In this document: positions 22,016 to 52,627 of the stretch, one piece after another
How the letters are laid out: each line of letters opens with the position of its first letter
Position numbering within the stretch: the stretch's first letter is position 1
Assembly (NCBI GenBank): GCA_003241965.1
Contig: QBMB01000001.1
Span: 105,448 to 169,447, forward strand
Length of the DNA stretch: 64,000 bases
Direction of reading: 5' to 3'
Origin: Burkholderiales bacterium
Lineage (GTDB): Bacteria; Pseudomonadota; Gammaproteobacteria; Burkholderiales; Burkholderiaceae_C
Made by a program: the position numbers and the translations under genes
Notes under the pieces: model-generated
The model's database searches: none
Told to the model about the DNA's origin: nothing
What the model saw: only the letters and a program-made list of their open reading frames with translations

Positions 22016-23263
22016 TCAGCGACCGAGAATGGTGATGGCGGCCACGGCTTCTTCAATTCCGAACAGGCCCCCACCGTTTTCTGCAATGGCAAGGCGGGCC
22101 CCTTGCACCTGGCGGGCCCCCGCTTCGCCGCGCAACTGCACGACCAGTTCGTGCAACTGACCCAGCCCGGTGGCGCCGATCGGGTGCCCCTTGGACTCCA
22201 GTCCGCCCGAGGTGTTGATCGGGATGCGTCCGCCAATCGTGGTGTCGCCGCGCTCGGCGAGCGGCCCGCCTTCGCCGAACGCACAGAAGCCAAGGTTTTC
22301 ACTCTGCACGATTTCGCCGATGGCGGTGGCATCGTGGACCTCGGCCAGCGAAATGTCTTGCGGGCCAACGCCTGCGAGTTCGTAGGCTTGTTTGGCAGCC
22401 TTGACGGTGATGTGTTGATCCAGGTCTTCAGGGCGGCGGGTGCTGCCGGTGGCAATGACCGATGCCAACACCTTGATGGCGCGCCCACGCTTTGCCAGGC
22501 GCGCCAGTGCTGCTTCGGAACACACGACGACTGCGGCAGCCCCGTCGCTGATGGGTGCGCACATCGGCAGCGTCAATGGGTAGGCGATGGGGGGCGCGGC
22601 CAGTACCTCGTCAATGGTGTATGCATTGCGGTATTGCGCCAGCGGGTTGTGCACCGAATGGCCATGATTCTTGGCCGACACGGCGGCAATTTGTCGCTGC
22701 GTGGTGCCGAACTCGCGCATGTGAAAGCGACCAAAGGCGGCGTAAATGTCCATGAACAGGCTGTAGGGCGCCTTGGACATGGACCCTTCAGGCGGCTCAA
22801 TACCGTGCCCCATTTGCAGCAGCCTGCGTTTGTTCTCCTCGACCGTGGCCACGTCCCAGGCGCCGTCGAAGACGCTGAACATTTTGGCTTTGTCGGCGCA
22901 AAACATTTTCTCGGCACCAATGGCCAGCGCGATCTCGCCTGCCCCCGAGCGCACGTACTGCACCGCCAGGTTGAAAGCCGAGCTGGCACTGGCGCAGGCG
23001 TTCTCAATGTTGAAGATCGGGATGGACTCGAAGCCCATCAAACGCAACACAATCTGGCCACGGATCATGGTCTGGCCTTCGAGCGCGCCCTGGGTTGCGT
23101 TAGAAAAGTATGCCGACTGGATGTCGCTGATGGACAGTCCGGCATCGGCCAGCGCGGCATTCACAGCAGCGGCGGTCAGTTGCTTGATATCGCGGTCAAT
23201 AAACTTGCCGGTCGGCGTCATGCCGACGCCGACTACGTAGACGGCGGCTTGCGGGCTGGTCAT
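22016..23263 (-). CDS. Thiolase family protein (SCP-x/nonspecific lipid-transfer type)
   Basis: NIENACASASSAF (nucleophilic Cys), NTSGGLESKGHPIGATGLGQ. Confidence 0.9.
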   Translation of the reverse strand: MTSPQAAVYVVGVGMTPTGKFIDRDIKQLTAAAVNAALADAGLSISDIQSAYFSNATQGALEGQTMIRGQIVLRLMGFESIPIFNIENACASASSAFNLAVQYVRSGAGEIALAIGAEKMFCADKAKMFSVFDGAWDVATVEENKRRLLQMGHGIEPPEGSMSKAPYSLFMDIYAAFGRFHMREFGTTQRQIAAVSAKNHGHSVHNPLAQYRNAYTIDEVLAAPPIAYPLTLPMCAPISDGAAAVVVCSEAALARLAKRGRAIKVLASVIATGSTRRPEDLDQHITVKAAKQAYELAGVGPQDISLAEVHDATAIGEIVQSENLGFCAFGEGGPLAERGDTTIGGRIPINTSGGLESKGHPIGATGLGQLHELVVQLRGEAGARQVQGARLAIAENGGGLFGIEEAVAAITILGR

Positions 23264-26546: not shown

Positions 26547-27731
26547 ATGAACCAGAAAGTCGTTGTTGCCGGTGTCGGGATGGTCCCGTTCACCAAACCG
26601 GGCGCCAGTGAACCCTATCACGTGATGGGAGAGAGGGCAGTGCGCCAGGCCCTTGCCGATGCGCGCGTTGAGTACGCCATGATCCAGCAAGCCTATGTCG
26701 GCTATGTGTATGGCGATTCCACCTGCGGCCAGCGGGCGCTCTACCCCGTGGGCATGAGCGGCATCCCCATCGTCAACGTCAACAACAACTGCTCCACCGG
26801 TTCGACGGCTCTGTTTCTGGCGCGCCAGGCAGTCGAAAGTGGTGCCGTCGAGTGTGTTCTGGCCCTGGGCTTCGAGCAGATGGCCGCAGGTGCCATCAAG
26901 GCCCAGTTCGAGGACAGGCCGACGCCGTTCGAGGAGTTTGACCGGGCCACCGCCGAACTCGTCGGGCGCCCGGAAATTCCGTTGGCTATCCGTTACTTCG
27001 GCGGTGCCGGCAAGGCGCACATGGACAAGTACGGCACCAAACTGGAGACCTTTGCCAGCATTCGCGCCAAGGCCAGCCGTCATGCTGCGAACAACCCTCT
27101 GGCGCTGTTGCGCAAGGAGATCTCGGTCGACGACGTGATGAACGCACCTGTGCTGTGGGAGGGCGTGATGACCCGCCTGATGGCTTGCCCACCGACCTGC
27201 GGCGCCGCTGCTGCGGTGATCTGCTCCGAAGCCTTCGCCAAGAAGCACGGGCTCGACACTCGCGTTTCCATTGTCGCCCAGGCGATGGCAACCGATCTTC
27301 CCAGTACCTTCGAGTCGCACGACATGATGCGCGTGGTCGGCTTCGATATGGCGCGCGATGCGGCGCAAAAGGTCTATCAGCAAGCCGGCATCGGCCCGCA
27401 GGACGTGAACGTGGTTGAGCTGCACGACTGCTTTGCACAGAACGAGTTGATCACCTATGAGGCGCTGGGCCTGTGCCCGCCCGGCGGTGCGGAAAAGTTT
27501 GTGCTGGACGGCGACAACACCTATGGCGGCAAGGTTGTGACCAACCCGTCGGGCGGCCTGTTGTCGAAAGGGCACCCTCTGGGCGCCACCGGCCTGGCGC
27601 AATGTTATGAGCTGACTCACCAACTGCGCGGCACGGCGGACAAACGCCAAGTTCAAGGCGCACGTGTGGCCTTGCAGCACAACCTCGGGCTGGGCGGCGC
27701 TTGTGTTGTCACGCTTTACCAGGCCGCCTGA
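26547..27731 (+). CDS. Thiolase family protein (SCP-x type)
   Basis: NVNNNCSTGSTALFLA nucleophile motif; NPSGGLLSKGHPLGATGLAQCYEL. Confidence 0.92.
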   Translation: MNQKVVVAGVGMVPFTKPGASEPYHVMGERAVRQALADARVEYAMIQQAYVGYVYGDSTCGQRALYPVGMSGIPIVNVNNNCSTGSTALFLARQAVESGAVECVLALGFEQMAAGAIKAQFEDRPTPFEEFDRATAELVGRPEIPLAIRYFGGAGKAHMDKYGTKLETFASIRAKASRHAANNPLALLRKEISVDDVMNAPVLWEGVMTRLMACPPTCGAAAAVICSEAFAKKHGLDTRVSIVAQAMATDLPSTFESHDMMRVVGFDMARDAAQKVYQQAGIGPQDVNVVELHDCFAQNELITYEALGLCPPGGAEKFVLDGDNTYGGKVVTNPSGGLLSKGHPLGATGLAQCYELTHQLRGTADKRQVQGARVALQHNLGLGGACVVTLYQAA

Positions 27732-31954: not shown

Positions 31955-33562
31955 ATGAGTTTGATGACATCCACCGCCACGCCGAACTCGCCCGAATTTC
32001 AGCGCAACCGCGAAGCCTATGAGCTGCGCATTGACGACTTGCATGAACGCCGCGAACGTGCCCTGATCGGCGGCCCCGAAAAGGCGCGCCTGCTGCACAA
32101 GAAGCGCAAGCAGTTGCTGCCGCGCGAGCGCCTGGCTGCCGTGCTCGACCCCGGCTCGCCCTTCCTCGAGTTCGGGCAGCTTGCCGGCGACGGCCTGTAC
32201 GAGGGCGTGCCGCCGGGCGGCAGCATCATCACCGGGGTGGGGCTGGTGTGCGGGCGCGCATGCATGCTGATGATCCACGATGCCACGGTCAAGGGCGGCA
32301 CCTACTACGGCATCACCGCAAAAAAACATGTGCGGGCCCAGATGTTCGCCTGGCAGCACCGGCTGCCGTGCATCACCATGGTCCAGTCGGGCGGCGCCAA
32401 CCTGCCGGAGCAGGCGCATATTTTCCCCGACGACGGCCAGTTCGGCTCCATTTTTTACAACCAGATCCGCATGTCGGCCGAGGGCATCACCCAGATCGCG
32501 ACCGTGCATGGGCCCTCAACCGCTGGCGGCGCCTATCTCCCGGCGCTGTGCGACGAGGCGGTGATCGTGCGCAACCAGGGTGCGATGTTCCTCGCCGGGC
32601 CCGAACTGGTGTATGCCGCCACCAAGGAAGAGGTTGACATTGAAACCCTGGGCGGCGGCGAGATGCACAGCCGCATCAGCGGCGTCACTGACCATCTGGC
32701 CGAGAACGATGGCCATGCCATCTCCATCGTGCGCGGCATCGTGGCCAACCTAGGTACCGTGGCCAAGCAACGCTGGGACGTGGTTCCGCCGCTGCCGCCC
32801 CGCCATGACCCGCGCGAGATTTACGGCATCGTCAGCGCCGACAACCGGCATCCGACCGACAACCGCGAAGTGCTGCTGCGGCTGATCGACGACAGCGAAC
32901 TACAGGAGTTCAAACCCCTGTACGGCGACACCATGATCTGCGGCTTCGCCCGCATCAAGGGTTTCCAGATCGGCATTCTGGCCAACAACGGCGTGATCTT
33001 CTCCGAGAGCGCGCTCAAGGGCGCGCACTTCATCGAGTTGTGCTGCCAGCGCGACATTCCGCTGCTGTTCATGGCCGATGTGTCGGGCTTCATGGTCGGC
33101 AAAGCGGTGGAGCAGCAGGGCATTGCCAAGCACGGCGCCAAGTTCATGACGGCCATGGCCTCGGCCAACGTGCCGCGCTACACGCTGATCACCGGAGGCT
33201 CGTACGCAGCGGCCTACCTGGCGATGTGCGGGCGCCCGTTCAAGCCCAACGTGATGATGATGTGGCCTACCGGCCGCGCCGCGCTGATGGGCCCCGAGCA
33301 GGCCGCCACCACGCTGGGCCTGGTGCGCGAGAACATCCACCGGCGCGAGGGCACAAGCTGGAGCGACGAAGAACGCGAGCAATTCAAGCAACCGATACGC
33401 GAGCAGTTCGAGAGCTTTTCCAGTCCCTACAACTACGCCTCCAATCTGTGGTGCGACATGGTGATTGACCCGCTGGAAACGCGCGACACCATGGCTTTGC
33501 TGCTGGAGCTGGCGGGCCGTGTGCCGGCGCGCGACACGCACTTCGGCGTGTTCCGCATGTGA
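31955..33562 (+). CDS. Acyl-CoA carboxylase carboxyltransferase subunit
   Basis: GPSTAGGAYLPALCDEAVIV, GVIFSESALKGAHFIELCCQRDIPLLFMADVSGFMVG, GSYAAAYLAMCGRPFKPNVMMMWPTGRAALMGPEQAA. Confidence 0.94.
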   Translation: MSLMTSTATPNSPEFQRNREAYELRIDDLHERRERALIGGPEKARLLHKKRKQLLPRERLAAVLDPGSPFLEFGQLAGDGLYEGVPPGGSIITGVGLVCGRACMLMIHDATVKGGTYYGITAKKHVRAQMFAWQHRLPCITMVQSGGANLPEQAHIFPDDGQFGSIFYNQIRMSAEGITQIATVHGPSTAGGAYLPALCDEAVIVRNQGAMFLAGPELVYAATKEEVDIETLGGGEMHSRISGVTDHLAENDGHAISIVRGIVANLGTVAKQRWDVVPPLPPRHDPREIYGIVSADNRHPTDNREVLLRLIDDSELQEFKPLYGDTMICGFARIKGFQIGILANNGVIFSESALKGAHFIELCCQRDIPLLFMADVSGFMVGKAVEQQGIAKHGAKFMTAMASANVPRYTLITGGSYAAAYLAMCGRPFKPNVMMMWPTGRAALMGPEQAATTLGLVRENIHRREGTSWSDEEREQFKQPIREQFESFSSPYNYASNLWCDMVIDPLETRDTMALLLELAGRVPARDTHFGVFRM

Positions 33563-35968: not shown

Positions 35969-36769
35969 ATGGACTACACGACACTACGCGTTGAAGCCGC
36001 GCCTGGCACCGAGCTCGCTGATGGCATCCGCACCCTGGTGCTCAACCGCCCCGAGGTGATGAACGCGATGAACACGCAGATGTTCATCGACCTGCGCAAC
36101 GCCCTGCACGAACTGGCCTTCGACGACGGCCTGCGTGTGCTGATCATCACCGGCGCCGGTGAGCGTGCATTCTCGGCCGGCGGAGACCTCAAGCAGCGCG
36201 ACGGTATGACCGACGGTCAATGGCGGCGCCAACACCAGCTCGCCGAAGAGGTGTTGCTGGCTGTCAAGGATTTCCCGCAACCGGTGATCGCCGCCGTCGA
36301 AGGCCACGCGCATGGCGGCGGCTGCGAACTGGCGTTGATGTGTGACTACATCGTCGCTTCGCGCGCTGCGGTATTTTCGCTGCCCGAGCTGCGGCGCGGC
36401 ATCATGCCCGGCGGCGGCGGTATCCAGAACCTCGTGCGCGCCGTCGGCGCGCGGCGCGCCAAGAAGCTGCTGTTCACCGCGCGCCGCTTCTCGGCCGAAG
36501 AAGCCACCGAATGGGGCATGGTCACAGACCTGGCCGAGCCGGGTACGGCGCTGGCCGCCGCAGTCGCCGACGCGCGCGACATCGTACTGGCCGCACCGAT
36601 GGCCACCCACTACGCCAAACTCGCCGCATCGCGCGGCGGCGAGATTGACTTCCACAGCGGCTACATGCTCGACGTCGCCGCCTACAACGTGCTGGTGTCC
36701 TCGGCCGACAGGCTGGAGGGCGTGAAGGCCTTCAATGAAAAGCGCCCACCGCGCTGGAGCGGACTCTGA
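35969..36769 (+). CDS. Enoyl-CoA hydratase/isomerase family protein
   Basis: VLNRPEVMNAMNTQM, ITGAGERAFSAGGDLKQRDG, AVEGHAHGGGCELALMCDYI. Confidence 0.92.
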   Translation: MDYTTLRVEAAPGTELADGIRTLVLNRPEVMNAMNTQMFIDLRNALHELAFDDGLRVLIITGAGERAFSAGGDLKQRDGMTDGQWRRQHQLAEEVLLAVKDFPQPVIAAVEGHAHGGGCELALMCDYIVASRAAVFSLPELRRGIMPGGGGIQNLVRAVGARRAKKLLFTARRFSAEEATEWGMVTDLAEPGTALAAAVADARDIVLAAPMATHYAKLAASRGGEIDFHSGYMLDVAAYNVLVSSADRLEGVKAFNEKRPPRWSGL

Positions 36770-36770
36770 C

Positions 36771-38774
36771 ATGTTCAAAAAAATCCTGATCGCCAACCGC
36801 GGCGAAATCGCCTGCCGCATCGCACGCACCTGCCGGCGCCTCGGTATTGCGGTGGCCGGTGTGCATTCGAGTGCTGATCGCGATGCGCTGCACGTTGACC
36901 TGATCGGCGAGTCGATCGAAATCGGTGGGGCAGCGCCGGCCGAGAGCTACCTGCGCATCGATGCGGTCATTGATGCGGCCCGGCGGACCGGGTCGCAGGC
37001 CATTCATCCTGGTTTTGGCTTTCTGGCCGAAAACGCGGTCTTCGCGCGCGCGGTCGAGGCAGCCGGCCTCGTCTTCGTCGGCCCGACGCCCGAGGTCATT
37101 GAGCGCCTGGGCGACAAGGCGTCGGCCAAGCGCGAGGCCCGCGCCGCTGGCGTGGCCGTGCTCGGCGGCAGCGAGCTGCCGAGCCGCGATGCGGCCGAAG
37201 TGGCAGCCACCGTGCGCGGACTACCGCTACCGGTGATTCTGAAGGCGGCCGCCGGTGGCGGCGGCAAGGGCATGCGGGTGGTGCAGCAGTTGGACGGGTT
37301 GATGGAGACCATCGAGGCGGCCATGCGCGAGGCCGGGAGTTCCTTTGGCGACACTGCGTTGATCGTCGAAGCCTTTGTCGAGCGCGGGCGCCACATCGAG
37401 GTGCAGATCGTCGGCGACGGCCATGGCGAAGTGATTCACTTGTTCGAGCGCGAATGCACGCTGCAGCGGCGCCATCAGAAAGTCATCGAAGAGGCTCCAG
37501 CGGTGAACCTCGCCCCGGCGCTGCGCGAGGCGATGCTCGGTGACGCGGTGCGCTTGGGACAGCGGCTGCGCTATCGCGGTGTCGGCACGGTGGAATTCAT
37601 CGTGCAGGGCGACAATCACCACTTTCTCGAAGTCAATCCACGGCTGCAAGTCGAGCATCCGGTGACCGAGGAGGTGACCGGGCTGGATGTGGTCGAGATC
37701 ATGCTGCGCATTGCCGCCGGCGAGGGCTTGCCCTTGCGCCAGAGCGAAGTGCAGGTGCGCGGCCACGCGATTGAGGCGCGGGTCTGCGCTGAAGATTCAG
37801 CACAAAATTTCCTGCCCTCCACCGGTGAACTGATCGCTGTTCGGTTCCCAACTTCTGTCGTGCGGGTTGAATCGGGTGTGCGCGCCGGCATGGCGGTCAC
37901 GCCGTACTACGACTCGATGCTGGCCAAGCTGATTGCGCATGCGCCCACGCGCGAGGCGGCGCTGGACCGTCTGAGTGGGGCGCTGGGCGAAACCCAGGTG
38001 CACGGCGTCGAAACCAACTGCGCCTTTCTGCAGCGCCTGCTGGCCCTGCCCGCCACGCGCGACGCCAGCTTCCACACCCGTCTGATTGACGAGGTGCTGG
38101 CCGAGGGGAGTCAGGGCGCGAGCAGTGCGCCGCTGGAGCGGCTGGCCGCTGCAGCGGCTTGGTGGTTGCTCGACGCGCGGTGCAACGGCAATCAATTCGG
38201 GGCCTGGTCGGCCCTGGACGTGACGGGTTGGCAGATGCACGCCGGCGACGATCGGCTCACGCCGGTTCCGGCGCTGTTGCTGCGCTCGGGCGGCACAACG
38301 CACGAGGCCCGGTTCGGCGCCGTCTCGCCCGAGTCCGAGGTGACGGTGCAAATCGGCACAGAACGAGTCCGCTTGGCACTGACCGCCATCGCCGGGGGCA
38401 ATTGGCGTTTGCGCATGGGGGATCGACATGAGGTGCTGACCATCGTGCGCAGCGTCGATACCGTGTTTGTGCAGAGCAGCGGCACTGCCCACGCCATCGG
38501 CGTGACCCCTTACCTCAACCAGGCCATCACCGGACGCCAGACCAGTGGCCAGTTGCGCACGCCGATGATGGGGATGATCCTGAAGATCCATGTGGCGGTT
38601 GGCGAGCGCGTACGTTCCGGCGACGTGGTGGCAACGATGGAGTCGATGAAGATGGAGCTGCGCATCAATGCCGACCACGATGGGGTGGTGCGCTCGCTGT
38701 CGGTGCAGAACGGACAAATGGTCGAGCGCGGCCTGGTGGTGGCCGTGGTTGAGTCCGAGGGCACTGCGGAATAA
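36771..38774 (+). CDS. Acyl-CoA carboxylase alpha subunit (fused biotin carboxylase plus BCCP domains)
   Basis: MFKKILIANRGEIACRIARTCRRLG, LKAAAGGGGKGMRVV, EVNPRLQVEHPVTEEVTG; C-terminal VVATMESMKMELRINADHDG. Confidence 0.94.
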   Translation: MFKKILIANRGEIACRIARTCRRLGIAVAGVHSSADRDALHVDLIGESIEIGGAAPAESYLRIDAVIDAARRTGSQAIHPGFGFLAENAVFARAVEAAGLVFVGPTPEVIERLGDKASAKREARAAGVAVLGGSELPSRDAAEVAATVRGLPLPVILKAAAGGGGKGMRVVQQLDGLMETIEAAMREAGSSFGDTALIVEAFVERGRHIEVQIVGDGHGEVIHLFERECTLQRRHQKVIEEAPAVNLAPALREAMLGDAVRLGQRLRYRGVGTVEFIVQGDNHHFLEVNPRLQVEHPVTEEVTGLDVVEIMLRIAAGEGLPLRQSEVQVRGHAIEARVCAEDSAQNFLPSTGELIAVRFPTSVVRVESGVRAGMAVTPYYDSMLAKLIAHAPTREAALDRLSGALGETQVHGVETNCAFLQRLLALPATRDASFHTRLIDEVLAEGSQGASSAPLERLAAAAAWWLLDARCNGNQFGAWSALDVTGWQMHAGDDRLTPVPALLLRSGGTTHEARFGAVSPESEVTVQIGTERVRLALTAIAGGNWRLRMGDRHEVLTIVRSVDTVFVQSSGTAHAIGVTPYLNQAITGRQTSGQLRTPMMGMILKIHVAVGERVRSGDVVATMESMKMELRINADHDGVVRSLSVQNGQMVERGLVVAVVESEGTAE

Positions 38775-39870: not shown

Positions 39871-40659
39871 ATGAGTGAAGCAGAAACCGTTTTGTATCAC
39901 GTGCGCGATGGTATCGCCACCGTCAAGATCAACCGCCCCGAGATGCGTAACGCGCTGTCACCGGCCGCTGCCAATCGGCTGCACGATCTGTGGTGCGAAG
40001 TCGATGCCGATAAAAATGTGCACGTGGCCATCCTGACTTCTGCCGACTGCGGCACTTTCTGCGCCGGGCTCGACCTGCGCGAGGCTTCTCGTGTCAAGAA
40101 GGACGAGGGCGTGGACATCCTGACCAAGATGAGGGACCCGTTTCACGGTCGCCAGCGCCGTGTGGCCAAGCCCATCATCGCGGCCATGACCGGGCACCTG
40201 ATTGCCGGCGGCATGATGCTGAGCCTGAACTCGGATTTGCGCGTAGGCCTCAAGGGCACGCAGGTCGGCATCACAGAAACCCGTATCGCCGGGCGCGGCA
40301 GCCCCTGGGCCATTCCCCTCCTGTGGATGCTGCCGCAGCCGCTGCTGATGGAGATGGTGCTGACCGGCGACCTGTATCCGATCGAAACCTTCCATGGGCT
40401 GGGTTTCATCAATTACCTGGAAGACACGCCTGATGCGGTGCGCGCTCGGGCCACCGCGCTGGCCGAACGCATCCGCGACAACGCTCCGCTGTCGGTGATG
40501 GCGGGCAAGGAATCGATCATGACGGCGATGAGCGCCGGTTGTGAGGCCGGCATGGCGCTGGCGCACAACATTTATCGCACCGCCTACGCCAGCGAGGACG
40601 CGCAGGAGGGTCCGCGTGCCTTCGCCGAGAAGCGCAAGCCGGTTTGGAAGGGGTGCTGA
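39871..40659 (+). CDS. Enoyl-CoA hydratase/isomerase family protein
   Basis: INRPEMRNALSPAAANRL, FCAGLDLREASR, AAMTGHLIAGGMMLSLNSDLRVG. Confidence 0.9.
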   Translation: MSEAETVLYHVRDGIATVKINRPEMRNALSPAAANRLHDLWCEVDADKNVHVAILTSADCGTFCAGLDLREASRVKKDEGVDILTKMRDPFHGRQRRVAKPIIAAMTGHLIAGGMMLSLNSDLRVGLKGTQVGITETRIAGRGSPWAIPLLWMLPQPLLMEMVLTGDLYPIETFHGLGFINYLEDTPDAVRARATALAERIRDNAPLSVMAGKESIMTAMSAGCEAGMALAHNIYRTAYASEDAQEGPRAFAEKRKPVWKGC

Positions 40660-43996: not shown

Positions 43997-45178
43997 ATGA
44001 ACCCCTCGGAGGAAAATTTCTTGAACAACCTGCTGTCCGCTTTCCGGTTCGCCGCCCTGCCCGCCGGGACGAATTCATTTCGCGCCGAGGTAAAGGCCTT
44101 TCTCCAATCCAGCTTTGAGCCAATGCCCGCCGACATCCGGGCCCGTTCATGGATGGGTTTCAATGCCGCTTTCAGCAAGAAGCTGGCCGCACGGGGCTGG
44201 GTCGGCGTGACCTTGCCAGCGCAATACGGTGGCGCCAGCCTGGACGCCTTCTCGCGCTTCGTGCTGGTGGAAGAACTGCTGGCCGCCGGTGCCCCGGTTT
44301 CCGCACACTGGATCGCCGACCGCCAGAGCGGGCCCCAGATCCTCAAGTTCGGAACCGAGGCGCAACGCCAGTTCTATCTGCCCAAAATTTGTGCCGCCGA
44401 GGCCTTCTTTTGTATCGGCATGAGCGAGCCCAATGCCGGCTCCGACCTCGCCAGCGTTGGCACACGGGCCAGCCGCTGCGAAGGTGGCTGGCGTTTGAAC
44501 GGCCACAAGATATGGACCACCAATGCGCAGCACTGCCACTACATGATCGCGCTGGTGCGCTCGTCGGGCGAGTCGCAGGATCGGCAAAAGGGCCTGTCGC
44601 AGTTCATTGTCGACTTGGCATTGCCCGGCGTGACGGTGCGCCCGATCCGGGATCTAACGGGGGACGCGCATTTCTCAGAAGTGTTTTTCGACAACGTGCT
44701 ACTGGCCGACGACGCGCTGATCGGCAATGAAGGCAGCGGCTGGGCGCAAGTCAATGCCGAACTGGCCTTCGAGCGCAGCGGCCCGGAGCGGGTGTACTCC
44801 AGCATCGTGCTGCTGGAGCACTGGATCACCTGCCTGCGCAGTACACCGGCGGTCTCGGCCCATGCCGCCACCATCGGGCGTTTCGCCACGCACCTGGCCA
44901 CGCTGCGCAACATGTCGATCGCCGTCACGGCCAAGCTCGTCAACGGGGAAAGCCCGTTGGTCGAAGCGGCCTTGGTAAAGGATATAGGCACCGAATTCGA
45001 GCAGAGCATTCCCGCCGTGATCGGAGCCGCCATCGCTATGGACCCGGACGCCCTGGTCGATGCCGAGTTGTACCGCGCCGTGGCTTATGTAAGCCAGATT
45101 GCGCCCACCTATTCCCTGCGCGGCGGCACGCGCGAGATCCTGCGCGGCATGATCGCGCGCGGTCTGGGCCTGCGTTGA
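43997..45178 (+). CDS. Acyl-CoA dehydrogenase, large-subunit type
   Basis: IGMSEPNAGSDLASVGTRA, NGHKIWTTNAQHCHYMIALVRSSG, YSLRGGTREILRGMIARGLGLR. Confidence 0.92.
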   Translation: MNPSEENFLNNLLSAFRFAALPAGTNSFRAEVKAFLQSSFEPMPADIRARSWMGFNAAFSKKLAARGWVGVTLPAQYGGASLDAFSRFVLVEELLAAGAPVSAHWIADRQSGPQILKFGTEAQRQFYLPKICAAEAFFCIGMSEPNAGSDLASVGTRASRCEGGWRLNGHKIWTTNAQHCHYMIALVRSSGESQDRQKGLSQFIVDLALPGVTVRPIRDLTGDAHFSEVFFDNVLLADDALIGNEGSGWAQVNAELAFERSGPERVYSSIVLLEHWITCLRSTPAVSAHAATIGRFATHLATLRNMSIAVTAKLVNGESPLVEAALVKDIGTEFEQSIPAVIGAAIAMDPDALVDAELYRAVAYVSQIAPTYSLRGGTREILRGMIARGLGLR

Positions 45179-45193
45179 AAACGAGAGCATTCC

Positions 45194-46171
45194 ATGTTTG
45201 CACAAGCGATTGAAGATATCCTCGAGGATCAGTGCACGCCCGCCGTGGTGCGCGCGATTGAGGCGGGCGGCTCGACCGCTGCGCTGTGGCAGGCGCTGCA
45301 AGGCGCCGGCTTCCTCGAACTGCTGGCGTCCGAGGACGCTGGCGGTGCCGGCCTCCCGCTGGCCGATCTGTTCCCGATACTGTGCAGCTTCGGCCGCTAC
45401 ACGGTGCCGGTGCCGGTGGCTCAGACGATTGTGGCGCGAGCGCTGCTGGGGTCGCAGTTTGCGATGCCCAACGGCATGATTACGCTGGGCGCTGCGTTGC
45501 GGCGCGAGGCCGATGGCGCCATCGTGTGCTCATTCACACCTTACGGCCGGGTGGCCGATTTCGTGCTGGCCCAAGATGGTGATGCCTTGTTGCTGCTGCC
45601 TTGCGCAGCGGCGCAGCGTGAAGCAAGCGGCGTGCATGGGAGCCTTGCCGCCAACCTGCGCTGGCCCGATGAGCGCATCGCGACGCACGTGCCCGGCGCT
45701 GGCCCACTGCTGCCGACATTCGCCGCGGCCTTGCACGCCGCCCTGCTCAGCGGGGCCATGACACGGGTCTTCGAAATGACACTCCAATTCTGCAATGACC
45801 GCATCCAGTTCGGCAAAACCCTGGGCAAGTTCCAGGCGGTGCAGCACCAGTTGAGCGTCATGGCCGAACATGTGGCTGCTGCCTCGATAGCCGCCGAAGC
45901 AGCGTTCCGTACCGACACGACCACGCCCTCCTTGCTCGCCGCTGCCATGGCCAAATCCCGCACCAGCGAGGCGGCGGTGCTGGTTGCCTCCATTGCCCAC
46001 GCGCTGCACGGTGCCATTGGCATTGCCGAAGAATACGATCTGCAATTGCTGACCCGGCGTTTGCATGAATGGCGCATTGCCCATGGCTCGGAAGCGCACT
46101 GGAACGCATTGATCGGCAATAGCGTGCTGGCTTCAGACGCGTCTATTGCCGATTTTGTACGGTCGGTTTAG
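45194..46171 (+). CDS. Short, divergent acyl-CoA dehydrogenase (small-subunit type)
   Basis: RIQFGKTLGKFQAVQHQLSVMAEHVAAASIAAEAAF, ALHGAIGIAEEYDLQLLTRRLHEWRIAHGSEAHW; 325 aa. Confidence 0.87.
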   Translation: MFAQAIEDILEDQCTPAVVRAIEAGGSTAALWQALQGAGFLELLASEDAGGAGLPLADLFPILCSFGRYTVPVPVAQTIVARALLGSQFAMPNGMITLGAALRREADGAIVCSFTPYGRVADFVLAQDGDALLLLPCAAAQREASGVHGSLAANLRWPDERIATHVPGAGPLLPTFAAALHAALLSGAMTRVFEMTLQFCNDRIQFGKTLGKFQAVQHQLSVMAEHVAAASIAAEAAFRTDTTTPSLLAAAMAKSRTSEAAVLVASIAHALHGAIGIAEEYDLQLLTRRLHEWRIAHGSEAHWNALIGNSVLASDASIADFVRSV

Positions 46172-46199: not shown

Positions 46200-48167
46200 C
46201 TACCCTGCCAGCTTGCCCTGCAGCTCGGTCACCGCCTCCGGGTTGACCAGCGAGGACAGGTCGCCCGGACCGTCGCCCCGGTACACGGCCCGCACGACGC
46301 GACGCATGATTTTCATGTTGCGTGTTTTGGGCAGGTCGCTGACCAGCAGCACCTGTCTGGGTCGGTAGGAGGCGCCCATGCCATGGACAACCGCTTGAGA
46401 CAGTTCAGCTTGCAGCGCCGCGTCCGCCGCCACGCCGGGCATGGGCACGCAGACGCAGACGATGGCCGAGCCCTTGATCTCGTCGGGCACGCCGATCACC
46501 GCCGCCTCTGACACCTTGCCGGTGCCGGTGAGCAGGGTTTCAATCTCCGACGGGCCGGTGCGCTTGCCTGAGACCTTGATCGTGTCGTCGCTGCGGCCGA
46601 GGATGTAGAACAAGCCGTCCGCATCGTGCATCGCAAAGTCGCCATGCACCCAGACGCCGGGCAGCGTGCGCCAGTAGCTGTCGAGGTAGCGCTCGTCGTC
46701 GCGCCACAGGCTCTTGGTGAAGCCGATGTTGGGGTTGCGCAGCACCAACTCGCCGACCTGGCCCGCGCCGACCGGCTGACCGTTGTCGTTCACGATGTCG
46801 ACCCCGGCGCCAAGCCCGCGCGCGCCGAACGAGCCTGGTCGCAAGGGGTGGTGCAGGGTGCCGGTGAAGTTGCAGCCGCCCACCTCGGTGCCGCCGACAA
46901 TGTTGAGGAACGGCAGACGCTCTTTGCAGATGTGCTTGAAGAACCAGCGCCAGGGCGCCTCGGTCCATGCCTCGCCACCGGAGCAGGTGATGCGCAATGC
47001 AGACAAGTCGTAGCTTTCGACCTCTGTGTCGCCGTAGCGCATCAGGCTGCGGATCAGCGTGGGCGCGACACCCAGATAGGTGACTTTGTGATCCTGCACC
47101 AGACGCCAGAAGCGTCCTGTGTCGGGGTAGTCGGGCGTGCCTTCGGCCACCAGCAGGCTGCCGCCGAAATAGCTCGGGATGCAGGCGCACATGGCACCCA
47201 CCATCCAGCCCATGTCGCTCATGAAGAAGAAGCGGTCGCTCTGCTTGAAATCGGCGCAGATGTGCATGTCGCGCGTGACCATCGAGCCCAGGAAACTCAC
47301 GTGGGTCCAGATGCAGCCCTTGGGCTTGCCGGTGGTGCCCGAGGTGTAGAGCAATACGGCGGGTGCCTCGGCGGCCATCTCGGCGGTCGGCATGTCACGG
47401 GGTTGGGCGGCGATCAGGCTGGCCCAGTCGTGGTCGCGTTCCGGCGTCATCGGGCATGGGGACGCTTCACCCAGGTGGCGCAGCACCACCACGTGCTGCA
47501 CGCTGGGTACCTCGCGCAGGGCTTCGTCCAGCACCGACTTCATGACGCCGGGGGTGCCGCGTCTCCAGGTGCCATCCACCGTCAGCACCGCCTTGGCTTG
47601 TCCGTCGTTCAAACGGGCGACAATGGGTTGCGGCCCGAAGCCCGAAAACAAGGGCATCAACACGGCGCCGATCTTCAGGACCGCAAAGAACGCGACAAAG
47701 GTCTCCGGCAGGTTGGGCATGTACAGGCCGACCCTGTCGCCCCGAGCAATGCCCAGCGACTGCAACGCTCCGGCCAGGCGGCAAACCTCGGCATCAAACT
47801 CGCGGTAACTCAAGGACTTGCGGTTTTTCGGGTCTTCGCCCTCCCACACCAGGAAAGGCTGGTCCCACACCGGCGTTCCGCGGTGCCGGTCCAGGCAGTT
47901 CAGCACGATGTTGGTGGTACCGCCGACACACCAGCGCGCCCACTCGATGCCGCGCGAGGTGTCAAGCATCTGCGTGTAAGGTTGATAGAAGCGCATGTCG
48001 CAAAACTCGAACACCTCTTGCATCAACCAGGCCGGATCGGCATCGGCGCGAGCGCTCAGGTTCTCGAAGCTCGATTCGCCCACTTTGTGCAAGAAGGCGG
48101 TCAGGTTGGACCGCGCCATCAGTTCAGGAGCGGGCCTCCATTCAAACGGTTGTTTGGTAGAATTCAT
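46200..48167 (-). CDS. AMP-dependent acyl-CoA synthetase (acetyl/acetoacetyl-CoA synthetase-like)
   Basis: LYTSGTTGKPKGCIWTHVSFLGSM, GGTEVGGCNFTG, GRSDDTIKVSGKRTGPSEIETLL. Confidence 0.92.
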   Translation of the reverse strand: MNSTKQPFEWRPAPELMARSNLTAFLHKVGESSFENLSARADADPAWLMQEVFEFCDMRFYQPYTQMLDTSRGIEWARWCVGGTTNIVLNCLDRHRGTPVWDQPFLVWEGEDPKNRKSLSYREFDAEVCRLAGALQSLGIARGDRVGLYMPNLPETFVAFFAVLKIGAVLMPLFSGFGPQPIVARLNDGQAKAVLTVDGTWRRGTPGVMKSVLDEALREVPSVQHVVVLRHLGEASPCPMTPERDHDWASLIAAQPRDMPTAEMAAEAPAVLLYTSGTTGKPKGCIWTHVSFLGSMVTRDMHICADFKQSDRFFFMSDMGWMVGAMCACIPSYFGGSLLVAEGTPDYPDTGRFWRLVQDHKVTYLGVAPTLIRSLMRYGDTEVESYDLSALRITCSGGEAWTEAPWRWFFKHICKERLPFLNIVGGTEVGGCNFTGTLHHPLRPGSFGARGLGAGVDIVNDNGQPVGAGQVGELVLRNPNIGFTKSLWRDDERYLDSYWRTLPGVWVHGDFAMHDADGLFYILGRSDDTIKVSGKRTGPSEIETLLTGTGKVSEAAVIGVPDEIKGSAIVCVCVPMPGVAADAALQAELSQAVVHGMGASYRPRQVLLVSDLPKTRNMKIMRRVVRAVYRGDGPGDLSSLVNPEAVTELQGKLAG

Positions 48168-48205: not shown

Positions 48206-48952
48206 GTGCTGGTCTCACCGCGTCGTTTCTTCTCCGTAGCTCTACGCAGTCAGAAAGGCAGTCCGTCCGTGCATGTTGATGAAGCGATTCGCAGTCGAAA
48301 ATCGGTCAGGCGGTTTCTACCCACGTCCGTTCCTTCCTCGGTTGTGCAGCACATTTTGAACGTGGCGGCGCGAGCCCCGAGTGGCAACAACGTGCAGCCG
48401 TGGAAGGTATATGCGGTGGCGGGCGAGTCCCGGCAGCGTCTGTGCGATGCCTTCATTGAGGCGGCCACGCACGAGCCAGACCGCCACCAGCCTGAATACG
48501 CCTACTACCCCACCACCTGGGTCGAGCCCTACCTGGATCGTCGGCGGCGCTGCGGCTTTGGCCTATATGCCAGCCTGGGCATCGCCCGCGACGATGCGGC
48601 GGCGCGCGCGCATCAGATGCTGCGCAACTACCTGTTCTTCGACGCGCCGGTGGGCCTGCTCGTCACGCTCGATCGCCGCCTGAACACCGGCAGCTTCATG
48701 GATCTGGGCATGTTCATCCAGAACATTCTGGTGGCCGCCCGCGCACAGGGCCTGCACACCTGTGCGCAGGCGGCGCTTGCTTGGTACCACAAAGTGGCGC
48801 GTGCCCAACTGCCTATCAGCGACCACGAAATCCTCGCTTGCGGCATCGCCCTGGGACACGAGGACCTGTCGGCCCCGGAGAACGCCTTCATCACCGAACG
48901 AACCGATGTGGAGACGTTTTCCAGCTTCCATGGTTTCGACGCGGCTCGCTGA
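48206..48952 (+). CDS. Nitroreductase family protein (start uncertain; GTG at 48269 also possible)
   Basis: AIRSRKSVRRFLPTSVP, AARAPSGNNVQPWKVYAV, LGMFIQNILVAARAQGLHTCAQAALA, GIALGHED. Confidence 0.9.
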   Translation: MLVSPRRFFSVALRSQKGSPSVHVDEAIRSRKSVRRFLPTSVPSSVVQHILNVAARAPSGNNVQPWKVYAVAGESRQRLCDAFIEAATHEPDRHQPEYAYYPTTWVEPYLDRRRRCGFGLYASLGIARDDAAARAHQMLRNYLFFDAPVGLLVTLDRRLNTGSFMDLGMFIQNILVAARAQGLHTCAQAALAWYHKVARAQLPISDHEILACGIALGHEDLSAPENAFITERTDVETFSSFHGFDAAR

Positions 48953-50679: not shown

Positions 50680-51882
50680 ATGGCAAACATCAAATCCGCA
50701 CCCTCGTCGCATACGCTTCGCGGTAAAACCGCGATCATCGGTGCGGGCATTTCCGCCGTCGGCCGCGTGCCGGGCAAGAGCGCGCTCGCGCTGGCCGCCG
50801 ACGCAGCGGGCAAGGCGCTGGCCGAGGCCGGCATCGGCAAGCACGAGGTCGATGGCGTGCTCTCAAGCTCCGCCTTTGCCTCGCCGTTCCACCGCTTCAG
50901 CGTGGCTTTCAGTGAATACCTGGGCATCCAGCCAACGTTTTCCAACACGCTGCAGGTCTCCGGCGCCACGGCGGCCACCATGTTCAACATCGCCGCCGCC
51001 GCCATTGCCGGCGGCCTGGCCGAGACGGTGCTGGTGGTGGGGGGCGACAGCCTGCTGACCGGTCTGTCCCCCGACCTTGCCCTGCGCTCGATGACCGAAA
51101 GCCGGGACCAGCAATACGAAATGCCCTTCGGCATTCCCGTGGCCAACACCTTCGCCATGACCGCGCATCGGCACATGAAAGAGTTCGGCACCACCTCCGA
51201 GCAGTTTGCCAAGGTGGCGGTGATCCACCGCGAACACGCACGCCGCACGCCGGGGGCGCAGATGACCGATCCGCTGAGCGTCGATGACGTGCTGAATTCC
51301 GGCTGGGTGACAACGCCTTACCACAAGCTCGACTGCTCTCTCATCTCCGACGGCGCAGCAGCCTTCATCGTCACGTCGGCCAAGCGCGCCAGGGCGCTGG
51401 GAATTGCCAAGCCCATTTACATCCTCGGCGGCGGCGAATGCTACACGCACGAGCACATCTTCCTGATGCCCTCGCTGACCACCACGGGCGCGGTGCAGTC
51501 GAGTGCCAGGGCCTACGACATGGCGGGCTGCAGGCCGAAGGACATCGACGTGGCCGGCGTCTATGACTGCTTCACCGGCACGGTGATCATGATGCTGGAG
51601 GACCTCGGTTTCTGCCCCAAGGGCGAGGGTGGGCGCTTCGTCGAGGACGGGCAGATCACCTACGGCGGAGCCATCCCCTGCAACACCCATGGCGGCCTGC
51701 TGTCGTTCGCGCACTCGGGCATGCCGGGCTCGCTGTTTCATTTCTACGAGGTAGTCAACCAGCTGCGCGGAAACTGCGGCGAGCGCCAGGTCGCGGACGC
51801 TGAACTCGGCCTGGTGCACAGCCTGGGTGCCGGTTTTGCGACCAACGCCACCACCATCCTGGGAACGGAGGCCACGCTGTGA
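50680..51882 (+). CDS. Thiolase-superfamily protein without nucleophilic Cys (lipid-transfer/Ltp2-like)
   Basis: Thiolase fold sequence with NTLQVSGATAATMF where the Cys motif is expected; followed directly by a DUF35 protein. Confidence 0.88.
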   Translation: MANIKSAPSSHTLRGKTAIIGAGISAVGRVPGKSALALAADAAGKALAEAGIGKHEVDGVLSSSAFASPFHRFSVAFSEYLGIQPTFSNTLQVSGATAATMFNIAAAAIAGGLAETVLVVGGDSLLTGLSPDLALRSMTESRDQQYEMPFGIPVANTFAMTAHRHMKEFGTTSEQFAKVAVIHREHARRTPGAQMTDPLSVDDVLNSGWVTTPYHKLDCSLISDGAAAFIVTSAKRARALGIAKPIYILGGGECYTHEHIFLMPSLTTTGAVQSSARAYDMAGCRPKDIDVAGVYDCFTGTVIMMLEDLGFCPKGEGGRFVEDGQITYGGAIPCNTHGGLLSFAHSGMPGSLFHFYEVVNQLRGNCGERQVADAELGLVHSLGAGFATNATTILGTEATL

Positions 51883-52310
51883 TCAACCAAAAAGACGCCC
51901 ACCTCAAGCCGCAGCCGATGCCGGATTCGGATTCGGAAATCTATTGGCGCGGCATTCAGGGGGGCAAGCTGCTGCTGCAGCACTGCACAGCGTGCGACCA
52001 CGTGCAGCTCTACCAACAGGCGATCTGCCGTGAGTGCGGTAGCGAGCGCCTTGAGCACCGCGCCTCCAGCGGTCGCGCCAAGGTGCATTCGTTCAGCGTG
52101 GTTCACCGGGCGCCCGGGCCGGCCTTCAAACAGGACACGCCCTATGCCGTGCTGCTGGTAGAACTCGAAGAAGGTCCGCGGATGATCAGCGCCTTCGTCG
52201 GTCCAGATCCTTCGGTGGTCACCTTCGACATGGCCGTCGAGCTGGTTTGCGAGCCCGTCGGTGGCGGTGTGACGCTGCCGCGATTCCGGGCGGCCGGACT
52301 TCAAGCGTGA
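51879..52310 (+). CDS. OB-fold/zinc-ribbon (DUF35) protein
   Basis: GTG start overlapping thiolase stop; CTACDHVQLYQQAICRECGSERLEHRASSGRAKVHSFSVVHR zinc ribbon plus OB fold. Confidence 0.92.
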   Translation: MINQKDAHLKPQPMPDSDSEIYWRGIQGGKLLLQHCTACDHVQLYQQAICRECGSERLEHRASSGRAKVHSFSVVHRAPGPAFKQDTPYAVLLVELEEGPRMISAFVGPDPSVVTFDMAVELVCEPVGGGVTLPRFRAAGLQA

Positions 52311-52435
52311 AACAGCGTCTTTGCGCGCCTTCTGAGCGTGTCTGAACAAATGATTCAACTCAATGCGAGATTTCGCTGACCCCATTTCGCTGCGTCGTCC
52401 TCCCAGACTGTAGTCGAGGGGGCTCTGACCTGACG

Positions 52436-52627
52436 ATGACCACGGTTGCGCGGCGGGCGATTGAGCCCTTGTCAATGCACGATTGGATCGTGGCAATCTT
52501 TGCACCGGTCGGCTACAGCAAGACGACATTGATGGGAGGATGGTTTCGCGCTTGCAAAGACGCCGACCCCGTGCGGGTGGGCCTCGACGCCTCCTGGCGC
52601 GACCAAGTGTTCTTTGCCCGTTTGTAG
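52436..52627 (+). pseudogene. Remnant of a MalT/LAL-type LuxR-family regulator (ATPase P-loop region only)
   Basis: DWIVAIFAPVGYSKTTLMGGWFRAC…PVRVGLDASWRDQVFFARL* resembles the APxGYGKTTLLxxW…WLSLDExDNDPxRFxxYL N-terminus of LAL regulators; ends by stop after 63 aa. Confidence 0.55.

What the first reader, a model, noticed from the sequence alone, without database searches (positions are those of the whole stretch)
50680..52310. Thiolase-fold protein lacking the catalytic Cys, translationally coupled to a DUF35 protein
The other two thiolases in the window have the nucleophile motif (NNCSTGSTAL at 26547..27731; ENACASASSAF at 22016..23263). Here the aligned stretch reads NTLQVSGATAATMF with no Cys, and the C-terminal GHPxGATG motif is altered to AHSGMPGS. 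The next gene (GTG overlapping the stop) is a zinc-ribbon/OB-fold DUF35 protein. Known precedent: Ltp2-DUF35 retro-aldolases of steroid side-chain degradation are Cys-less thiolase-fold enzymes. The inference is that this pair performs C-C cleavage or formation that is not thiolysis, on an unknown acyl-CoA.
Basis: partly seen in the sequence, partly recalled or inferred. Interest (0 to 1): 0.65.

Follow-up and report, generated by a model that had tools for sequence, protein, structure and literature searches.

The report
Thiolase-fold retro-aldolase beside a γ-carboxylase pathway
A bacterial enzyme that looks like a thiolase has lost the thiolase nucleophile but keeps the acid/base pair of a recently described bile-acid side-chain aldolase, and its gene travels with carboxylase and ring-opening genes, so it probably splits carbon chains in a still uncharted route for breaking down branched or ring-shaped acids.

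Summary
Window 50680-51882 encodes a 400-aa thiolase-fold protein, overlapping by 4 nt a 143-aa DUF35 protein (51879-52310). The nucleophile Cys is Gly95, and it is Gly in 80 of 80 orthologues. However, the protein is not Cys-less at the active site. All orthologues keep Tyr295-Asp-Cys297-Phe, the catalytic Tyr/Cys pair of the bile-acid aldolase CtSal, plus His345 (the thiolase 'GHP' His). This Gly/Tyr/Cys/His set differs from Ltp2, Sal, IpfD and SCP2 thiolases, and the orthologues form their own clade (100/99). I therefore file it as a Sal-like retro-aldolase by mechanism, but not as a Sal or an Ltp2. Context narrows the role. An orthologue of the window's MCC-type (γ-carboxylating) carboxylase sits beside the gene in 32 of 80 loci. 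Among 200 Burkholderiales genomes, exactly the same three carry both genes. No HMG-CoA lyase homologue lies in any of the 80 loci. A curated-cutoff BadI (2-ketocyclohexanecarboxyl-CoA hydrolase) occurs in one compact cluster and in the window's own contig. Best reading: it cleaves a tertiary 3-hydroxyacyl-CoA formed after γ-carboxylation and hydration, in place of HMG-CoA lyase, possibly in alicyclic (naphthenic-type) acid breakdown. Chemistry and substrate are inferred, not assayed.

The parts
50680..51882 (+). thiolase-fold protein (400 aa), proposed retro-aldolase subunit
   Evidence: Pfam Thiolase_N/Thiolase_C_1; AF2 pLDDT 88.8, Foldseek top hits 4u4e, CtSal 9myr, TbSLP, Ltp2
50962..50964 (+). 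Gly95, at the position of the thiolase nucleophile Cys
   Evidence: alignment; Gly in 80/80 orthologues
51562..51573 (+). Y295-D-C297-F motif, equivalent to CtSal Y302-D-C304-Y (proposed base and acid)
   Evidence: PMC12329534
51712..51714 (+). His345, equivalent to the GHP His of thiolases (Gln352 in CtSal, Tyr344 in TcLtp2)
   Evidence: 80/80 His; alignment
51867..51871 (+). GGAGG, likely ribosome-binding site of the DUF35 gene inside the end of the thiolase-like gene
   Evidence: sequence read
51879..52310 (+). DUF35 protein (zinc ribbon + OB fold, 143 aa), stand-alone, 4-nt overlap with the thiolase-like gene
   Evidence: Pfam PF12172, PF01796; within 300 bp downstream in 80/80 loci, 4-nt overlap in 56
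51984..52037 (+). zinc ribbon C36-x2-C39-x10-C50-x2-C53 (canonical Cys4 type, not the C3H1 type of CtShy)
   Evidence: Cys positions; compare PMC12329534
48977..50653 (+). AMP-dependent acyl-CoA ligase, next gene upstream; orthologue in 13/80 loci (Betaproteobacteria only)
48206..48952 (+). nitroreductase-family flavoprotein, first gene of the four-gene run; in 23/80 loci; role unknown
46200..48167 (-). divergent 655-aa ACS/acetoacetyl-CoA-synthetase-family ligase, the commonest accompanying gene after DUF35 (50/80 loci at 60% identity or more)
31955..33562 (+). MCC-type carboxyltransferase beta subunit; its orthologue adjoins the aldolase gene in 32/80 loci; distinct from the genome's own LiuB
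36735..38774 (+). biotin carboxylase/BCCP alpha subunit of the same carboxylase
39871..40659 (+). crotonase-family protein; 58-65% orthologues near the aldolase gene in several loci; candidate hydratase

Best explanation
The two genes encode a thiolase-fold retro-aldolase with its DUF35 partner (an alpha2beta2 assembly by analogy with Sal and Ltp2). It cannot do thiolysis through the usual acyl-enzyme because the nucleophile Cys is Gly95. Tyr295 takes the proton from the beta-hydroxyl of a 3-hydroxyacyl-CoA, the C2-C3 bond breaks, and Cys297, possibly tuned by His345, re-protonates the acetyl-CoA (or acyl-CoA) enolate, as proposed for CtSal. The DUF35 protein shapes the acyl pocket. The physiological substrate is most likely a tertiary 3-hydroxyacyl-CoA, which cannot be oxidised to a ketone and so cannot be thiolysed, made by an MCC-type γ-carboxylase followed by a hydratase. 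The pair thus does the job that HMG-CoA lyase does in leucine breakdown. The best specific version: cyclohexylidene-acetyl-CoA is carboxylated at ring C2 and hydrated, this pair releases acetyl-CoA and 2-oxocyclohexanecarboxylate, the ACS/AacS-like ligase re-activates the keto acid, and BadI opens the ring. Shown by sequence: nucleophile loss, dyad conservation, clade, gene association. Inferred: aldolase activity, residue roles, substrate. My confidences: retro-aldolase 0.8; works downstream of the γ-carboxylase 0.6; alicyclic substrate 0.35.
For: Gly95, Tyr295, Cys297 and His345 are each 80/80 in orthologues. CtSal Y302F is nearly inactive and C304A/S/H inactive (PMC12329534). Tree clade with Sal/Ltp2/IpfD 100/99, Cys-containing thiolases outside. 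Fold matches 4u4e, CtSal, TbSLP and Ltp2. DUF35 adjacent 80/80. The window CT31955 orthologue (62-74% identity; the same neighbours are only 50-55% to the genome's own LiuB) adjoins it in 32/80 loci; some MCC-type CT in 38/80. The window CT scores 560-602 bits to MCC-type beta subunits, 414 to GCC and 255 or less to the PCC lineage. Exact co-occurrence in the same 3 of 200 Burkholderiales genomes, chance about 8e-7, or 5e-5 without the own genome. In a phylum sample of 399 the one other carrier also has the CT, next door. No HMG-CoA lyase homologue in the window or any of the 80 loci. BadI above its curated cut-off in L118, in one cluster with CT, BC, ACAD, the 655-aa ligase, nitroreductase, aldolase and DUF35, and in the own contig about 6-7 kb before the window.
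Against: About half of the 80 loci have no carboxylase within reach, so the enzyme may serve other routes there. In the window the carboxylase genes lie 12-19 kb upstream, in a run separated from the aldolase run by the divergent ligase gene. BadI is about 57 kb away in the own contig and passes its cut-off by only 0.2 bits. Many loci come from one genus (Bradyrhizobium), so counts are not independent. The hydratase for the route is not pinned down, and none other than BadI lies near the L118 aldolase. The nitroreductase has no role in the scheme. No activity was measured.
Confidence: 0.6

Rival explanations
1. It is a retro-aldolase, but it acts directly on a beta-branched or alicyclic 3-hydroxyacyl-CoA without prior carboxylation, for example (1-hydroxycyclohexyl)acetyl-CoA to cyclohexanone plus acetyl-CoA (an activity described long ago in Arthrobacter, from memory); the carboxylase handles a later or parallel branch.
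For: About half of the loci lack a nearby carboxylase but keep the aldolase/DUF35 pair. Sal and Ltp2 need no carboxylation (PMC12329534).
Against: The strict co-occurrence with one carboxylase orthologue in distant genomes would be unexplained.
Confidence: 0.25
2. It is a steroid side-chain aldolase (a true Sal or Ltp2).
For: 34% and 33% structural-alignment identity to CtSal and TcLtp2; Tyr/Cys dyad as in CtSal.
Against: Separate 100/99 clade; His in place of Gln352; Cys4 instead of C3H1 zinc ribbon; DUF35 not fused to a MaoC hydratase; no steroid genes recognised in the conserved context.
Confidence: 0.05
3. It forms rather than breaks C-C bonds, or acylates a nucleophile, like PhlC or the archaeal thiolase/HMG-CoA synthase complexes that also carry DUF35 proteins.
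For: DUF35 partner and fold are shared.
Against: Acyl transfer in thiolases runs through the nucleophilic Cys, absent here; the context is catabolic (ligases, dehydrogenases, BadI).
Confidence: 0.06
4. It is a catalytically dead scaffold or a residual thiolase.
For: Loss of the nucleophile alone would allow this.
Against: 216 of 400 columns are conserved in at least 78 of 80 orthologues, and all four active-site positions are invariant, which a dead protein would not keep.
Confidence: 0.04

Closest known systems
Sal/Shy aldolase of Comamonas testosteroni (CtSal, PDB 9myr)
   Same: thiolase fold, Gly for nucleophile Cys, YDC motif Tyr and Cys, DUF35 partner
   Different: 34% structural-alignment identity; Gln352 is His345 here; DUF35 fused to MaoC and C3H1 zinc there; bile-acid context there; separate clade
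Ltp2-ChsH2(DUF35) aldolase (PDB 6ok1)
   Same: fold, Gly for nucleophile, catalytic Tyr of the YD motif, DUF35 partner
   Different: YDHF and Tyr344 there, YDCF and His345 here; DUF35 fused to MaoC there; separate clade
IpfD/IpfE of ibuprofen degradation (pIBU218)
   Same: thiolase-like plus stand-alone DUF35 plus acyl-CoA ligase gene arrangement; retro-aldolase proposed in the literature (PMC9195938); Tyr conserved
   Different: IpfD has YDAF and Tyr at the His345 position; acts on an aryl dihydrodiol-CoA
Sphaerobacter thermophilus putative thiolase (PDB 4u4e), function unknown
   Same: best sequence and fold match; Gly for nucleophile; Tyr and His kept
   Different: YDSF instead of YDCF; separate clade
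TbSLP, the trypanosomal SCP2-thiolase-like protein
   Same: YDCF motif, no nucleophile Cys; proposed to be an aldolase (PMC12329534)
   Different: no DUF35 partner; 26% identity by structure
HMG-CoA lyase (TIM-barrel, LiuE)
   Same: proposed reaction type: retro-aldol release of acetyl-CoA after MCC-type carboxylation and hydration
   Different: unrelated fold and mechanism (metal-dependent); analogue, not homologue

Membership tests
Thiolase superfamily fold | two-domain thiolase fold | tested here: met
   Pfam; AF2 and Foldseek TM 0.8-0.9 to thiolases
Functional thiolase (SCP2 type) | nucleophilic Cys in the N-terminal half | tested here: not met
   Gly95, 80/80 orthologues
Functional thiolase (SCP2 type) | HDCF motif with His | tested here: not met
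   Tyr295 replaces the His; the Cys is kept
Sal (bile-acid C5 side-chain aldolase) | Tyr/Cys dyad of YDC motif | tested here: met
   Y295/C297 align with Y302/C304
Sal (bile-acid C5 side-chain aldolase) | Gln352 near the catalytic Cys | tested here: not met
   His345
Sal (bile-acid C5 side-chain aldolase) | DUF35 partner with C3H1 zinc finger, fused to MaoC (Shy) | tested here: not met
   stand-alone 143-aa DUF35 with C-x2-C-x10-C-x2-C
Sal (bile-acid C5 side-chain aldolase) | same clade in a tree | tested here: not met
   query clade 100/99, CtSal outside it; only one Sal sequence was used
Ltp2 | YDHF His and second catalytic Tyr344 | tested here: not met
   Cys297 and His345 instead
Thiolase-fold retro-aldolase (by mechanism) | catalyses retro-aldol cleavage of 3-hydroxyacyl-CoA | not testable with these tools
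   needs an enzyme assay
DUF35 (ChsH2-type) partner | zinc ribbon plus OB fold, gene next to a thiolase-fold gene | tested here: met
   Pfam above cut-offs; 80/80 adjacent
HMG-CoA-lyase-like step (by role) | gene linked to a γ-carboxylase where HMG-CoA lyase is absent | tested here: inconclusive
   linkage in 32-38 of 80 loci and exact genome co-occurrence, no lyase nearby; but half of the loci lack a carboxylase and the reaction is unproven

The most novel reading that the evidence does not exclude
A thiolase-fold/DUF35 aldolase has replaced HMG-CoA lyase in a γ-carboxylation route for alicyclic or other beta-branched acids: ligase, acyl-CoA dehydrogenase, MCC-type carboxylase acting on a ring carbon, hydratase, this aldolase, keto-acid ligase, then BadI ring opening. 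This would be a new pathway linking cycloalkane-acetic (naphthenic-type) acids to pimeloyl-CoA, and a non-homologous counterpart of HMG-CoA lyase.
Probability: 0.3. Interest if true: 0.75.

Novelty: new variant of a known kind. Interest (0 to 1): 0.55.

Why it matters
Thiolase-fold aldolases are known from steroid side chains, and proposed for ibuprofen. This is a distinct, very conserved clade found in several proteobacterial classes and once in Actinomycetota (a Paraconexibacter), with its own active-site set and a consistent non-steroid context. A proteomics paper on naphthenic acids (PMC8289671, abstract) says that the proteins and mechanisms of their biodegradation are unknown. The clusters here name concrete, testable genes. 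Databases call relatives of this protein 'acetyl-CoA acetyltransferase' or 'thiolase', so many annotations of this family are probably wrong about the reaction.

Tried and rejected
HMG-CoA lyase or LiuB of the leucine operon as the explanation of the carboxylase: the genome has a separate Liu-type set on C101 with its own lyase and LiuB. Geranyl-CoA carboxylase identity: the CT is closer to MCC (560-602 bits) than to GCC (414). Using the Phe191/Gly162 selectivity residue (PMC4673880) to size the carboxylase pocket: dropped, since I could not match the residue numbering safely. Steroid aldolase: context and clade do not fit. Paper searches for a described DUF35/γ-carboxylase or cyclohexylacetate route found none in the held library; that library lacks most subscription papers. 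One family search failed because of wrong coordinates. No complex of the aldolase with DUF35 could be modelled with the tool.

Full report
OBSERVATION. Pfam assigns Thiolase_N and Thiolase_C_1 to the first, and the ChsH2 zinc ribbon and OB fold to the second. The other two thiolases of the window do carry the nucleophile Cys.

ACTIVE SITE. Aligned with SCP2 thiolase, CtSal, TcLtp2, IpfD and relatives, the nucleophile position is Gly95. The C-terminal motif is Y295-D-C297-F, where SCP2 thiolases have HDCF, CtSal YDCY, TcLtp2 YDHF, IpfD YDAF, and the 4u4e group YDSF or YDAF. The GHP His is kept as His345; CtSal has Gln there, TcLtp2 and IpfD Tyr. In 80 orthologues of 73-100% identity fetched from public genomes all four positions are invariant. 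In CtSal, Y302F is nearly inactive and C304A/S/H are inactive; Tyr302 is proposed as base and Cys304 as acid (PMC12329534). So the protein lacks only the nucleophile and keeps the Sal-type pair. The set Gly/Tyr/Cys/His is a hybrid of Sal and SCP2-thiolase features.

RELATIONSHIPS. A maximum-likelihood tree of 32 sequences puts query and orthologues in one clade (100/99), inside a larger clade (100/99) of proteins without the nucleophile, that holds Sal, Ltp2, IpfD, 4u4e and several paralogues of the same genome; Cys-containing thiolases lie outside. Only one Sal and one solved Ltp2 were included, and some branches are long. An AlphaFold2 model (pLDDT 88.8) matches 4u4e, CtSal, an archaeal thiolase, TbSLP and Ltp2 best. 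The DUF35 protein has a canonical Cys4 ribbon, unlike the C3H1 ribbon of CtShy, and is not fused to a hydratase.

CONTEXT. The window is from a Hydrogenophaga-like genome. The aldolase run is nitroreductase, acyl-CoA ligase, thiolase-like, DUF35, with a divergent 655-aa ACS/AacS-family ligase. Across the 80 loci, DUF35 follows the thiolase-like gene in all, 56 with the same 4-nt overlap; the 655-aa ligase is near in 50, the nitroreductase in 23, an orthologue of the window carboxylase CT (31955-33562) in 32, and some MCC-type CT in 38. The counts come from related genomes, 19 of them Bradyrhizobium, so they are not independent; but linkage to a carboxylase is seen in Alpha-, Beta- and Gammaproteobacteria, Hydrogenophilia and one Actinomycetota.

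CO-OCCURRENCE. As a test not tied to neighbourhood, 200 Burkholderiales genomes were searched with thresholds set from the earlier gap between orthologues and paralogues. Three have the thiolase-like orthologue and three the CT orthologue, the same three genomes in three families; the chance of this is about 8e-7, or 5e-5 leaving out the own genome. In 399 genomes of the phylum the only other carrier also has the CT, directly adjacent; one further genome has the CT alone. In the phylum search only 3-4 candidates per genome were scored.

WHICH CARBOXYLASE. The window CT belongs to the lineage that carboxylates the gamma carbon of alpha,beta-unsaturated acyl-CoA (MCC 560-602 bits, GCC 414; lineage as in PMC4673880). 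The genome has a separate leucine-type set with its own LiuB and HMG-CoA lyase on C101. No HMG-CoA lyase homologue lies in the window or any of the 80 loci; the contig has one at C89:69756, near two other carboxylases.

RING GENES. L118, a Burkholderiales cluster, holds within about 11 kb CT, biotin carboxylase, BadI (476.3 bits, cut-off 467.6), acyl-CoA dehydrogenase, the 655-aa ligase, nitroreductase, the thiolase-like gene and DUF35. BadH-like SDRs (below cut-off) lie downstream of the carboxylase in Bradyrhizobium and Afipia loci, with BadI-like proteins (below cut-off) in several; an AliA-like ligase (718 against 792.3) is in L068. The own contig has BadI (467.8, cut-off 467.6) and a BadH-like gene 80% identical to that of L068, about 6-8 kb before the window.

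MECHANISM AND ROLE. The simplest reading that uses all of this: a retro-aldolase for a tertiary 3-hydroxyacyl-CoA, after γ-carboxylation and hydration, replacing HMG-CoA lyase. With a ring substrate the product would be a 2-oxocycloalkane carboxylate, which the ACS/AacS-like ligase and BadI would take on. The residue roles come from CtSal; the order of steps and the substrate are inference. Loci without a carboxylase show that the enzyme may also serve other beta-branched substrates.

VERDICT. Real, conserved, and not an artefact; a new variant of thiolase-fold retro-aldolases, not a member of Sal or Ltp2. Enzyme assays are the missing step.

Noticed in passing
window 52338-52621: Remnants (72-85% identical pieces) of an 895-aa LuxR/MalT-like regulator that is intact directly downstream of DUF35 in several relatives (for example L049, L053, L054); in the window only fragments remain.
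   Followed up: partly
window 43997-45178 and 45194-46171: A split acyl-CoA dehydrogenase pair; the second resembles IpdE2 (103 bits, cut-off 450), the first lacks the C-terminal domain, like heteromeric steroid-type dehydrogenases.
   Followed up: no
own contig C89 (L134-L139 and window): A catabolic island with five MCC-like carboxyltransferases, an HMG-CoA lyase homologue, three thiolase-fold proteins without the nucleophile Cys, and several LIV-type transporters.
   Followed up: partly
L143:1939-3503 (pIBU218): A second thiolase-like/OB-fold pair with the full Ltp2 signature (YDHF, GEAYIHG) beside a CoA-transferase and an enoyl-CoA hydratase, about 12 kb from ipfD/ipfE.
   Followed up: no
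L012 (own genome C133:10064-11185): Another thiolase-fold paralogue with an unusual YENF motif and Ltp2-like Tyr, next to its own DUF35 gene.
   Followed up: no
L011 (own genome C133:1587-2603): Thiolase-fold paralogue near a DUF35 gene, without a recognisable YD or HD motif (YAPC) and with Gly/Met in the nucleophile stretch; long branch in the tree.
   Followed up: no
window 48206-48952: A nitroreductase-family flavoprotein conserved with the aldolase pair in 23 of 80 loci, with no obvious role in the proposed route.
   Followed up: partly
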